From contig NC_089593.1 in NCBI RefSeq assembly GCF_019320115.1, positions 18,459,134 through 18,523,133 of the forward strand: a DNA stretch of 64,000 bases, given 5' to 3'. The DNA is from Miscanthus floridulus. Taxonomy: Eukaryota; Streptophyta; Magnoliopsida; Poales; Poaceae. Positions 33,912 through 64,000 of this stretch are shown here, one piece after another. Under the pieces are notes generated by a model that saw only the letters and a list, made by a program, of their open reading frames with translations, did not search any database and was not told the DNA's origin. How positions within the stretch are numbered: position 1 is the first letter of the stretch; each line of letters opens with the position of its first letter. Made by a program: the position numbers and the translations under genes.

Positions 33912-34687
33912 GTTAACGAGCTTATATTCCATTCTTCTCCTGCCCTTTCTTCAGAACTTATTTTTAGAGGACTCATAAATTTCATACCTTTAGATTGCAT
34001 ACTTTCTACAACATTGTTCACATTTACCTTATATCTGGTTCCACTTCTGTTGGTTAACCTTCCTATAAATTCTATGCTTACTAATAGATTCGTTCCTTTA
34101 AATTCTTCATATCCTTTAGTTTGAACTCCGAATGCCATCTTATCTATAAATTCTTTTACTGGCATTATTAAATATGGAGCTATATATGTTATTAACATAT
34201 TTTCATTCATATCACCTTCTAAAAATCCTAATGCTGCTTTATTTATTGAGTCCCATCTTTTATCTAATAAGGTTATTAGAACCTTGGTTCCTAATTTTTT
34301 CCTTGTCATTCCTTTAATTCCAATGATATACATTCCCTGATGTATATATTTATACCCTGAATATTTTAAAGCATTCTCAAATTGTTTACTAACAATTCTT
34401 AGCTGAACTGGTTCTGTCAATACACTTAATTCTACTTCTCTAGATATTCTATATAATCCATTTTTATTTTCAAACCATCCCATTTGATAAATTTGTTGAG
34501 GCCTTATTTTCCTCAAAGTATCTTTCTGATATCTTTCAAGATCTCTTTCTAAGTCTATCACTTCTTCTAAGGTTTCAATATCCTCACATCCTCCTTTTAG
34601 TTTATCTTTAAAACCTAGGGGTCTTATGTCTTTATTAACTAATTGGAGTGACTTGTCTCTTCTAGAGAGGCTCTTAGATACTTCCAT
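33912..34687 (-). pseudogene. Pararetroviral movement protein, B-type copy 1 (3'-truncated)
   Basis: An open frame from ATG 34687 through about 258 viral codons. The domain from about residue 90 to 240 matches caulimovirid 30K-superfamily movement proteins: SGYKYIHQGMYIIGIKG, a TRKKLGTKV strand, DKRW, and QTKGYEEFKGTNLL. Such proteins form or dilate plasmodesmal tubules for cell-to-cell spread. The first 49 nt overlap ORF B1 in another frame. The frame has no internal stop, but at 33911 viral DNA ends and the ORF runs on into retrotransposon gag sequence (to 33845), so the product would be a chimera lacking the rest of the polyprotein. Confidence 0.82.
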
Positions 34688-34980
34688 CTCTCTGAATTTA
34701 AAGATCTAGTGGACTCAATTATTCCTGCTGATGACAACACAATTTCTTTGTTATGCTCAACAATATTAATATTATCAGTCTTCTTATATAGGAAAGTTAT
34801 ATCCTTTTTAATATAATCACTATTTTGGCTAATTTTACCTAGAGAAACTTTACTTTCTTCTAAAATTTGTAAAGCTAATTCTAATTTATTATTGGTAGCT
34901 GAATATTGCTCTTCAAGGTGCTTATGTTCCTTTTGCAGCCTATCAAATTTTAGTTCTAGCTCGTCTTGCCTCTTTCCCCA
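34639..34980 (-). pseudogene. ORF B1, coiled-coil protein, copy 1 (5'-truncated)
   Basis: An open frame ending at 34639 with a Lys/Glu/Leu heptad-rich stretch (WGKRQDELELKFDRLQKEH and following), then ISQNSDYIKKDITFLYKKTD. It precedes and overlaps the movement-protein start by 49 nt. The 5' part is missing because of a head-to-head junction near 34981-34988. The position resembles small ORFs before the movement protein in other caulimovirids, but the function is unknown. Confidence 0.6.
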
Positions 34981-34988
34981 CTGCGAAT
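34981..34988. other. Head-to-head viral junction
   Basis: To the left, B-type DNA reads on the minus strand (ORF B1). To the right, B-type DNA reads on the plus strand (end of ORF Y). Only a few bases of filler (CTGCGAAT) separate segments homologous to 36960 and 62397. This is an inverted join that a single colinear integration cannot produce. Confidence 0.7.
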
Positions 34989-35085
34989 ATATGAAGAGAT
35001 ATTCATAAAAGACACAAATCATGATAATTGGAGAATTTTTAGTGAAGCAAAAGAATTAGAAGGAAATACCAAATTTGCTCCTTAA
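34989..35085 (+). pseudogene. C-terminal end of B-type ORF Y
   Basis: Matches 62397-62492: the last ~30 codons, including DTNHDNW and EAKELE, ending at the same TAA. It is the start of a nearly full, circularly permuted B-type unit (34989-40732). Confidence 0.75.
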
Positions 35086-61352: not shown

Positions 61353-62492
61353 AATAAGCAAGAAGAACAAGAAAATGTTCAAATAATAGATAGTGTAAAT
61401 GAAAATATTTTAGTCTGTGATGATGATATAATGGACGATGAATCAATATACTCAATTATAGAGACAGATGAAATAGAATATGATGAAGAAAAAGAATCAA
61501 GTGATGAAGAGTTAGACTTAATTGATGAGTTAGCAGGATTAAAGATAGAAATGATGGATCAAATAAACTGCGAACACAAGTGGGATAATAAAAAAGGTGA
61601 TCCTAATATAAAATGTGTATTTTGCATATATTATGAAGATCCAGCAAAAAGAGCAACATGTAGGCTATGTTTAAGACAAGCATGTATGTCATGTCTAAAA
61701 CAGCAAAGTGACATGAAAAATAACTCAGAAGCTGAAATACTATATGAGGAAAATAAAGTGCAATCAGAAAAAGAAGTAATTCTAGAGGAAAAAGGAAACA
61801 AATATTTAAACAATATTCCACAAGAGTTTCTCATTCCTAGATTAAGTTTTAACACTGAACAAACTTTGTCTTACTTTACTCGTGATATTATAGATATAAT
61901 TTGGAAGAAATATGCTGAAAGGCATTACAAAACCTTTCATGATTTACAAAATTACTTTATGAAATTATACCAAGGTAAAGAAAGGCATCTAGGAATAATT
62001 GTGAATGCAAATACTTTTCCTTTACTTCAGCTCGATGATAAATTAATTGTTAAGCCTCATCAAAGATTCTTAATATTGAGGGCTGATATAAATTTAAAAT
62101 ATTTTAGGAGTATACAAAGAAATATTGGAGATGCTATCTCCCTACAAACTATTATTGATCATGGATTAGTCCATAATATATATGGAACACTTGAAGAAAT
62201 ACTCCAATCAGACCTTGGAATAGCTATCAAAGAAGCTTGTAAGAAATTAGCATGTATTCAAGGGAAATACAAAATTAAGTTTTGTTCTAATCCACCAAAA
62301 TTTACACAACCAATAAGACCTGCATGCCATGATATATATGTCACGAAGGGTTCATACAAATTTCCTACTACATGGACTTCAGAGTCATGGCAAAACTATG
62401 AAAAGATATTCATAAAAGACACAAATCATGATAATTGGAGATTTTTTAGTGAAGCAAAAGAATTAGAAGAAAATACCAAATTTGCTCCTTAA
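61179..62492 (+). pseudogene. Chimeric ORF: A-type RT N-terminus fused in frame to B-type ORF Y
   Basis: Open for 437 codons. About 60 residues of RT (up to NIPNKQE), then the acidic segment, Cys/His cluster CEHKW...CVFC...CRLCLRQACMSC and complete C-terminal domain of ORF Y, ending at 62492. The join lies in AATAAGCAAGAA (61353-61364), a word present in both parents: A type at about 54575 (minus) and B type at 39763. All three RT catalytic Asp residues are absent, so no polymerase is made. It is the only copy with an intact Y C-terminus. Confidence 0.85.
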
Positions 62493-63145
62493 TATTATAT
62501 GATGTACCAAAATAAAATAATCAAAGTGTTCTTATGAGAATACTATGGAAGGTACAGCATAATACAAAGAGAAGTTGGAAGATTAATAAAGCCCAATTAT
62601 GGCAAAGAATGTCAATTACGAAAAGAATATCGTGAATTGTTGTCCTGGTATGAAATATGGCAACCTGAAGAAGCGGACAATGAAGAAAATATTGAAGAGT
62701 CAATATAGACTCAGTTCAATATCAATATATATATATACAAGAAATATACTCCCTATGTTGATAAAGCGTTATCAACAATTTGGCCGGGGGAAGAGATATA
62801 TTACAATACATATTACATGCCATGATTTTTGATATGATGTTTGCAACATCAATCATTCGGGCGTGGAAGACCATACCAAAGAATATCCAGAAGGATAAGA
62901 CCGTGCGCGACGAAGGACAGCGCAAAAGGAATATGCGGTCACTCTACTGTAGCCAGGACAATTATTCTCCATCCAGCTGTCCAGGCAACAGTAAAGGATG
63001 ATAATTGAAGACGCGAGATGCTTCCTTAAGCACGAAGGCTCCTTAGACGATGACTTTGCCTCGAAGGAACTTCAGACGATAAGCATGAAGGACACTCCCT
63101 TCGTGCTATAAAGCGAGACACCGGGCGCATTCATTCATCATCGGA
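62493..63145 (+). promoter_or_regulatory. Viral intergenic region and promoter, copy 3
   Basis: Follows the ORF Y stop. The same intergenic sequence as 35086-35745 but without its 28-bp duplication. TATA box at 63107-63112 in CGTGCTATAAAGCGAGACA. Confidence 0.65.
63107..63112 (+). promoter_or_regulatory. TATA box, viral promoter copy 3
   Basis: Third copy of the conserved TATAAA block. It marks the next repeat of the tandem viral unit. Confidence 0.7.
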
Positions 63146-64000
63146 GGATCGGCATTCAGCATTGGAGTGAAGCACCAGACACTGAAGACACCACACTCCA
63201 CTCTCCACTCCACTCCACCAACGCTCCACTCACACATACACATGAATACATGATCTCAGGAGCACTCTGAGACCCATCCACGAATAATAGTAATCACCCA
63301 CTACCGTTGTATCACTCCACCTTTGTAAATTACAGAATAAGGGAGGTCCCCGTGTTCCTTCTGAGCTTGTAAGGTAATCCCTCAGGTTTGTGCTAAGTGC
63401 TTGGGGTTTCCCGAAAGGGAAAGCCGTATGTAAGCTTGCTCTGTGGAAATGAATGAAGCTTTCCTGTTTTAATCCCTGCCTTCCTTTAAGCTCGTTCATA
63501 TGGGGCGATGTCTCTATGCTAGGGACCCTTGAGGAGAAGCCTCTGCGTTTGTTATTCTCGTGTTAGCCCTGGTAGCAGCGTTTGTAGAGAACCCTGTGTG
63601 CTCAGAGAAGTGTTCTCTTCGGGTGGAACTGCCTGGGCAGACGATAGAGCCCGAGTCCTGTGTATTCGTGGCTGGGGATAGCGAGGGAGTAGACCGGGTT
63701 AGTCTGGTTCTGAAGCGAGCTAGTGATGCATACGGTGAGTACCGAGTAGGACTATCACAAGCATAGTCGCACGACCGGCTGAAATATTGGTCTCGCCAGC
63801 CTGCAAAAGATCCTGAGAAATATTAATCAGCATACTCACTAATCGCACGCATATTCAATAATCGCACGCATCCTGCATCCATAAAGAAATACGAAGTGCT
63901 CCAAATAGTTACGCGCATAGTGCTCGAATAGTGAAGAAGTTTAGTGCCCGAGCCACTCTCTGGTGAGTGCTCGCGCACTGTTCATATTCCGAATTTGAAT
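63146..64000 (+). other. Viral leader, copy 3 (cut by window edge)
   Basis: Colinear with 58382-59280 but runs off the window before the primer site. The small ORF remnant is at 63560-63766; the polyadenylation position reads AATGAA. Confidence 0.65.

What the first reader, a model, noticed from the sequence alone, without database searches (positions are those of the whole stretch)
33912..64000. Candidate bipartite pararetrovirus: two genome types with shared leader but different genes
Seen: A-type units (56457-53506 minus; 59487-61352 plus) begin after the primer site directly with an X-like domain and carry protease, RT, RNase H and a viroplasmin-like ORF, but no movement or coat protein. 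B-type units (36740-40732 plus; 34980-33912 minus) start with the same promoter, leader and primer site, then carry a coiled-coil ORF, movement protein, X, coat-like protein and Y, but no protease or RT. Homology between the types is near-complete through the leader and stops about 30 nt after the primer site. Known: bipartite organisation has been proposed for some endogenous florendoviruses of grasses (recalled, not checked). Inference: A and B depended on each other, A for replication and B for movement and packaging.
Basis: partly seen in the sequence, partly recalled or inferred. Interest (0 to 1): 0.92.

Follow-up and report, generated by a model that had tools for sequence, protein, structure and literature searches.

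The report
Fossil two-part plant virus in grass
A grass chromosome carries old fragments of two partner virus genomes that share one control region but divide the virus's genes between them; such pairs are already published, and relatives in wheat, oat and rice suggest that both partners came from one ordinary undivided virus.

Summary
In window 33912-64000, A-type units encode X, part of Y, protease, RT, RNase H and a second ORF, without movement or coat protein. B-type units encode a coiled-coil ORF, movement protein, X, coat, zinc knuckle, Y and a C-terminal domain, without protease or RT. That domain carries the SFKTE signature of a published lineage: components A/B of bipartite florendoviruses (Geering 2014, PMC4241990), alias ePVCVL2/ePVCVL of rice, sorghum and switchgrass (Chen 2017, PMC5491270). 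New here: (1) A and B share 91.6-93.4% of the control region but 66-73% of shared coding domains; (2) copies of both types diverged under purifying selection, so they lived as viruses; (3) this B lacks a protease; (4) wheat, oat, Aegilops and rice proteins join coat or zinc knuckle to protease and in some cases RT, so A and B look like complementary deletion derivatives of an undivided ancestor; (5) one unit is an in-frame A/B recombinant; (6) A1 is split by an LTR retrotransposon about 1.3 My old. Mutual dependence is the best reading, not shown; an undivided helper virus is not excluded. The host assembly could not be searched.

The parts
33912..34980 (-). B2: fragment of a B-type unit: end of the coiled-coil ORF and movement protein
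   Evidence: tblastn MP 33929-34687, 90%; 93.5% nt to B1
34990..36739 (+). B1 upstream part: 3' end of SFKTE (34990-35091), TATA box 35715, AATAAA word 36048, leader
36740..36751 (+). tRNA-Met primer site, B1
   Evidence: exact word match
36752..37263 (+). B1 coiled-coil ORF, frameshifted in this copy
   Evidence: heptad signal not reached in 0 of 2000 shuffles; dN/dS 0.23 (0.07-0.86) against B2
37259..38014 (+). B1 movement protein
   Evidence: Pfam MP; 88% to Setaria
38204..38680 (+). B1 X domain
38792..39761 (+). B1 coat protein and zinc knuckle, frameshifted
   Evidence: Pfam coat domain
39771..40121 (+). B1 Y domain (Yn, Yc)
40209..40729 (+). B1 SFKTE domain, cut at its 3' end
   Evidence: 91% to P0001
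40730..40887 (+). leader fragment joined to B1 (internal deletion)
   Evidence: 93% to 36346-36503
40886..41106 (-). A1 ORF2, viroplasmin-like part, on the far side of the LTR retrotransposon
   Evidence: profile E 1.1e-27
41107..53273 (+). Ty3/gypsy LTR retrotransposon inserted in A1 ORF2, TSD TTAAT at 41102-41106 and 53274-53278
   Evidence: LTRs 95.5% by BLAST; K80 0.0348
53274..53506 (-). A1 ORF2, N-terminal part
   Evidence: profile E 6e-22 and 2e-11
53530..54969 (-). A1 RNase H and reverse transcriptase
   Evidence: Pfam RVT_1 E 1.1e-38; 95% and 90%
55117..55572 (-). A1 protease, with a stop inside
   Evidence: 89% to P0176
55819..55971 (-). A1 Yc
56011..56457 (-). A1 X domain and start of the A ORF
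   Evidence: ATG read
56525..57576 (-). A1 leader with a primer site one base off the word
57578..58017 (-). extra copy of part of the control region
   Evidence: 94-95% to A1, A2, B1 and AB
58018..59391 (+). A2 control region, TATA box 58336
59392..59403 (+). tRNA-Met primer site, A2
   Evidence: exact word match
59488..61364 (+). A2 X, Yc, protease and start of RT
61353..61364 (+). A/B recombination point: 12 nt identical in both parents, frame kept open
61362..62492 (+). B-type Y and SFKTE joined to A2 (unit AB)
   Evidence: 96% nt to B1
62493..64000 (+). control region of unit AB, TATA box 63107, runs off the window

Best explanation
The locus is a compound, decayed insertion of a two-component pararetrovirus of grasses (Caulimoviridae; components A and B of the florendovirus-like lineage, alias ePVCVL2 and ePVCVL). 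Shown: both components carry nearly the same promoter, leader and primer-site block; A carries protease, RT, RNase H and ORF2; B carries the coiled-coil ORF, movement protein, coat and SFKTE; copies of each type diverged under purifying selection. Inferred: the host transcribed both; A's RT copied both RNAs from the same primer site; A's protease processed B's polyprotein, which has none of its own; B's coat and movement proteins served both. Inferred from relatives: the pair arose from one undivided genome in the order MP-X-CP-Y-PR-RT by complementary deletions in the virus, B's enzymes being replaced by SFKTE. Exchange of the control region between partners is the published reason why it stays alike; my one test for it here was negative.
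For: Gene sets. SFKTE word in B as in PMC5491270. Control region A/B 91.6-93.4% against X 69.8-72.5% and Yc 66.1-67.9% nt. dN/dS: A1/A2 0.28 (0.15-0.56), B1/AB Y-SFKTE 0.20 (0.11-0.43), MP B1/B2 0.19 (0.09-0.38), X between A and B 0.15-0.23. RT falls in a 14-row grass clade (SH-aLRT 100) apart from the named badna- and caulimovirus rows. Ten relatives join coat or zinc knuckle to an A-like protease, five of them reaching RT. The A and B junctions recur in Setaria, Miscanthus (B) and unnamed rows (read by eye). An A/B recombinant shows that the two sequences met.
Against: No complementation is shown. The host assembly was never searched, so numbers of A, B and undivided loci are unknown. MaxChi test of the control region: p 0.25. 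dN/dS of the RT piece is uninformative (0.48, 0.09-1.79), and Yc between types includes 1 (0.63-0.88). The first 50 codons of X are 81.7-86.0% identical, so the fall from control region to X is graded. Many relatives have no host name, and at least four of the ten joining proteins look like spliced gene models. The recombinant could have formed during integration.
Confidence: 0.7

Rival explanations
1. A and B were non-autonomous derivatives that each lived off an undivided helper virus, not off each other.
For: Undivided-type proteins exist in relatives; Geering et al. say a helper cannot be discounted (passage); Chen et al. describe such a commensal pair, eRTBVL2 with eRTBVL.
Against: Of named rows with coat or knuckle, 0 of 11 panicoid proteins against 6 of 12 from other grasses join it to protease or RT (Fisher p 0.014, rows not independent), so no helper is seen in panicoids; the lists are partial.
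Confidence: 0.18
2. A and B are products of deletion and shuffling after integration, never separate viruses.
For: The cluster is rearranged: inverted pieces, an extra control-region copy, an internal deletion at 40730 and a retrotransposon insertion.
Against: The same A and B junctions occur in other grasses, and copies diverged with dN/dS 0.19-0.28, which neutral decay in a chromosome would not give.
Confidence: 0.04
3. A alone was a self-sufficient retroelement-like replicon and B a parasite of it.
For: A keeps the replication enzymes; component B was twofold more abundant than A in Oryza (Geering 2014, passage).
Against: A has no coat or movement gene, and caulimovirids have no integrase and integrate incidentally (passages), so A alone has no known route between cells.
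Confidence: 0.06

Closest known systems
ePVCVL and ePVCVL2, non-Oryza group (Sorghum bicolor, Panicum virgatum; Chen et al. 2017, PMC5491270)
   Same: A lacks MP and CP, B lacks RT/RH, B has SFKTE, control regions nearly identical (97.1% in the paper).
   Different: The paper lists MP, CP and PR for ePVCVL and calls the non-Oryza form structurally equivalent to it; this window's B has no protease. I could not see the paper's domain table for sorghum. Host here unidentified.
Bipartite florendoviruses OsatBV and Sorghum bicolor virus, components A and B (Geering et al. 2014, PMC4241990)
   Same: Complementary components, shared intergenic region, compound insertions.
   Different: Geering gives B an aspartic protease, and a C-terminal extension homologous to A's ORF2 that is more divergent in rice and sorghum; here B has no protease and SFKTE gave no profile match to ORF2 (shallow alignments).
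Vitis vinifera A virus and B virus (monopartite and bipartite florendoviruses)
   Same: A possible undivided parent beside a divided virus (review passage), the same logic as the grass proteins found here.
   Different: Independent origin in a dicot according to the papers.
eRTBVL2 with eRTBVL (rice)
   Same: SFKTE in place of RT, control region shared with a partner.
   Different: Tungrovirus-related, and the partner is autonomous.

Membership tests
Caulimoviridae | RT with RNase H, and a 30K-type movement protein | tested here: met
   Pfam RVT_1 1.1e-38, RNase H-like 6.7e-14, MP 3.3e-06
Caulimoviridae | coat protein with zinc knuckle and tRNA-Met primer site | tested here: met
   coat domain 2.5e-28; knuckle 39589-39761; primer word at 36740 and 59392
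Florendovirus (tentative genus) | RT placed among florendoviruses | tested here: inconclusive
   RT clusters with grass rows and, one fork out (SH-aLRT 89), rows that include a Vitis protein, apart from named badna- and caulimoviruses; no row was labelled florendovirus; quick tree
ePVCVL/ePVCVL2 pair, non-Oryza group | SFKTE domain and no RT/RH in one partner | tested here: met
ePVCVL/ePVCVL2 pair, non-Oryza group | PR, RT/RH without MP and CP in the other partner | tested here: met
ePVCVL/ePVCVL2 pair, non-Oryza group | nearly identical intergenic regions of the partners | tested here: met
   91.6-93.4% between decayed single copies
ePVCVL/ePVCVL2 pair, Oryza group | protease in the SFKTE-bearing partner | tested here: not met
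   no PR in B units (best E 0.045, opposite strand); 18 of 20 clear SFKTE relatives in the list also show no PR, several being fragments
Bipartite virus | each component needs the other and both are packaged | not testable with these tools
   fossil sequence only; gene sets are complementary
Bipartite virus | no undivided form in the same host | not tested
   host assembly search unanswered nine times

The most novel reading that the evidence does not exclude
Grasses record a stepwise change from an undivided to a fully divided pararetrovirus. Undivided coat-Y-protease-RT forms survive as fossils in wheat, oat, Aegilops and rice. In the published rice pair A keeps MP and B keeps a protease. 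In the panicoid pair of this window A has lost MP and CP, and B has lost protease and RT, so neither holds an enzyme, coat or movement gene of the other; B's polyprotein could mature only with A's protease in the same cell. This would be the most completely divided reverse-transcribing virus known to me.
Probability: 0.4. Interest if true: 0.65.

Novelty: new member of a known kind. Interest (0 to 1): 0.42.

Why it matters
How an undivided virus becomes two that need each other is an open question, and the papers read here say that no living member of the family is divided. If the relatives found here are what they look like, grasses hold undivided, partly divided and fully divided fossils of one lineage, so that the order of gene loss, the keeping of shared control DNA and selection on each part can be measured. 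The bipartite claim itself is not new.

Tried and rejected
Structure of SFKTE: the AlphaFold model of the window's domain with 15 relatives had mean pLDDT 37.4 and pTM 0.23, so no fold search was run. SFKTE as a divergent ORF2: no profile match (probability 1.1; the only aligned stretch lay outside SFKTE; both alignments shallow and holding other domains). Recombination inside the control region: MaxChi on 82 informative sites, p 0.25. Relatives in viral contigs: two scans without a match. ORF2 as viroplasmin: Cauli_VI hits weak and below the curated cut-off (P0064 E 0.0045, P0194 0.0095, P0195 0.059; none for P0156), a lead only. Post-integration shuffling as the origin of A and B: rejected because the junctions recur in other grasses. 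The function of SFKTE stays unknown.

Limits of the lists: of 759 RT relatives only the best 120 were listed and used; in the third protein search only the 7995 candidates sharing most words were scored; 212 proteins in all entered. Search length limits make a protein with both MP and RT unlikely to appear: none of the grass rows has both; three dicot rows do (P0081, P0151, P0173); one rice row, P0199, has MP, coat and part of a protease. All trees are quick searches, some on few columns.

Papers: PMC5491270, Results and Discussion read in full, part 1 of 2 of the supporting-information legends, passages; its supplements were not open to me. PMC4241990: outline, the bipartite section, passages. 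PMC13308828: outline and passages. PMC10377300, PMC9719215, PMC5766536, PMC9794742: passages. Searches (SFKTE; ePVCVL; florendovirus with wheat, Brachypodium, Setaria, Triticum, monopartite; caulimovirids of Triticum and Aegilops) listed no paper, by title, on an undivided grass member; only the top 20 of long lists were seen, and subscription journals are missing from the library.
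Full report
What is there. The window lies in a grass genome: the nearest named relatives of its viral proteins come from Miscanthus, Setaria, Panicum and Oryza. With twelve domain segments, viral pieces were found only between 33912 and 64000. They form a compound, partly inverted cluster: B2 (33912-34980, minus), B1 with its upstream control region (34990-40887, plus), A1 (minus), an extra piece of control region (57578-58017), and a plus-strand unit that begins as A and ends as B (58018-64000, called A2 and AB). 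A Ty3/gypsy element (41107-53273) with LTRs 95.5% identical by BLAST and a 5-bp duplication TTAAT sits inside A1's second ORF, so A1 was in the chromosome first. The LTR distance (K80 0.0348, 2955 sites) gives about 1.3 My at 1.3e-8 per site per year (the rate is recalled).

Gene sets. A has X joined to the second half of Y (Yc), then protease, RT, RNase H and ORF2. B has a coiled-coil first ORF, MP, X, coat, zinc knuckle, Yn, Yc and SFKTE. Profiles made from relatives found MP and CP strongly in B pieces only, and PR and RT strongly in A pieces only. Additions: X and Yc are shared by both types, this B has no protease, and the plus-strand A unit is a recombinant. Its switch point is a 12-nt word identical in both parents at 61353-61364, and the frame stays open across it. 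None of the 212 relatives shows this join, so it may be private to this locus.

Control region against coding. Between B1 and the A copies the control region is 91.6-93.4% identical; A1 and A2 are 92.8%; AB is 95.0-95.1% to the A copies and 92.9% to B1. The shared coding domains differ far more between types: X 69.8-72.5% nt (its first 50 codons 81.7-86.0%) and Yc 66.1-67.9%. Chen et al. explain such a pattern by repeated exchange of the control region between partners (PMC5491270). My one formal test for a breakpoint there was negative (p 0.25).

Selection. Between copies of one type dN/dS is 0.28 (A1/A2, 348 codons; 0.15-0.56), 0.20 (B1/AB Y-SFKTE, 314 codons; 0.11-0.43) and 0.19 (MP B1/B2, 241 codons; 0.09-0.38). 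The coiled-coil ORF gives 0.23 (74 codons; 0.07-0.86). X between A and B gives 0.15 and 0.23. These proteins were kept by selection while the copies diverged, that is as viruses and not in the chromosome (inference). Two results do not help: the RT piece (96 codons, 0.48, 0.09-1.79) and Yc between types (0.63-0.88, limits beyond 1).

Origin. Of 212 relatives, 16 join coat or zinc knuckle to PR or RT in one protein. Five (P0036, P0039-P0042) carry another protease; four of them are in the protease tree, as a separate branch (SH-aLRT 100), and P0039 looks alike by eye. In P0036 this protease leads into SFKTE, as in P0038: a B that has its own protease. One (P0144) has only a weak coat hit (E 0.0081). 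The other ten are P0019, P0021, P0023, P0024 (wheat), P0028 (oat), P0034, P0035 and P0049 (Aegilops), P0192 and P0199 (rice); seven of these are in the protease tree, on the same side as the A-type rows, and three are too partial for it. Five of the ten (P0021, P0024, P0028, P0049, P0192) also hit the RT profile. P0021 runs from coat to the start of RT, and P0028 from knuckle through protease into RT. Four (P0035, P0049, P0192, P0199) look like gene models with spliced-out pieces. Among named rows with coat or knuckle, 0 of 11 panicoid and 6 of 12 other grass proteins join it to PR or RT (Fisher p 0.014, rows not independent).

Trees (quick, SH-aLRT only). RT: the window's A falls in a 14-row clade (100) with rice, wheat and Aegilops rows. 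Protease: six A-type rows including the window form a clade (99) next to three rows of rice or rice-like sequence (84). Coat: twelve B-type rows form a clade (98) next to two rice rows (89). Yc: B rows are a long separate branch (99), while A rows fall among the undivided forms. The simplest reading is one undivided ancestor and two complementary deletions made in the virus and inherited: by eye the A junction recurs in P0179 (Setaria) and in P0175, P0176, P0178 and P0194, and the B junction in Setaria (P0002, P0008, P0009), Miscanthus (P0006) and unnamed rows. P0188, without MP and CP but with its own junction, and P0198, with MP but without CP, suggest more than one path.

Known or new. The bipartite idea for this lineage is in print. 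Geering et al. 2014 describe components A and B in rice and sorghum, with compound insertions. Chen et al. 2017 describe the sorghum and switchgrass pair, with A lacking both MP and CP, and name the SFKTE domain. This window is a member of that group from an unidentified grass, probably near Miscanthus; it could even be sorghum, which I could not test. Geering's table lists zero florendovirus coverage for Setaria italica and Brachypodium, whereas named proteins of both fall in this family here. I found no print on undivided grass members in the searches listed under Tried and rejected.

How it most likely worked. Shown: shared control region, divided genes, selection on both. Inferred: transcription of both by the host, copying of both by A's RT from the same primer site, processing of B's polyprotein by A's protease, coating and movement of both by B's proteins. 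Dependence on an undivided helper remains possible. What is missing on the data side is a census of loci in the host assembly, which the tool did not answer in nine tries.

Noticed in passing
61353-61364: In-frame A/B recombinant joined at a 12-nt microhomology; not seen among 212 relatives. Could be a viral template switch or a repair event at integration.
   Followed up: partly
41107-53273: Ty3/gypsy LTR retrotransposon inserted in A1 ORF2 with TSD TTAAT; gives a lower age bound for the viral insertion.
   Followed up: yes
57578-58017: Third, inverted copy of part of the control region between A1 and A2, 94-95% to the other copies.
   Followed up: no
36752-37263 and 34639-34980: B-type first ORF with a strong heptad pattern (0 of 2000 shuffles) and dN/dS 0.23; perhaps a virion-associated-type protein (recalled analogy).
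   Followed up: partly
40886-41106 and 53274-53506: A-type ORF2 resembles the Cauli_VI (viroplasmin/RNase H1 N-terminal) domain weakly in relatives, below the curated cut-off, whereas a review says that florendovirus ORF2 has no detectable caulimovirid homologue.
   Followed up: partly
relatives P0036, P0038-P0042, P0186, P0188, P0189: A second protease branch in proteins without host name: B-like proteins with their own protease before SFKTE, and an A-like protein without MP and CP whose protease falls on the same side of the tree. Possibly another, separately divided pair.
   Followed up: no
relative P0100: A protein named Corynebacterium sp. MC-02 is 62% identical to the plant viral RT; probably plant DNA in a bacterial assembly.
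   Followed up: no
25005-25373: Local tandem-like self-similarity (78-90%) outside the viral cluster.
   Followed up: no
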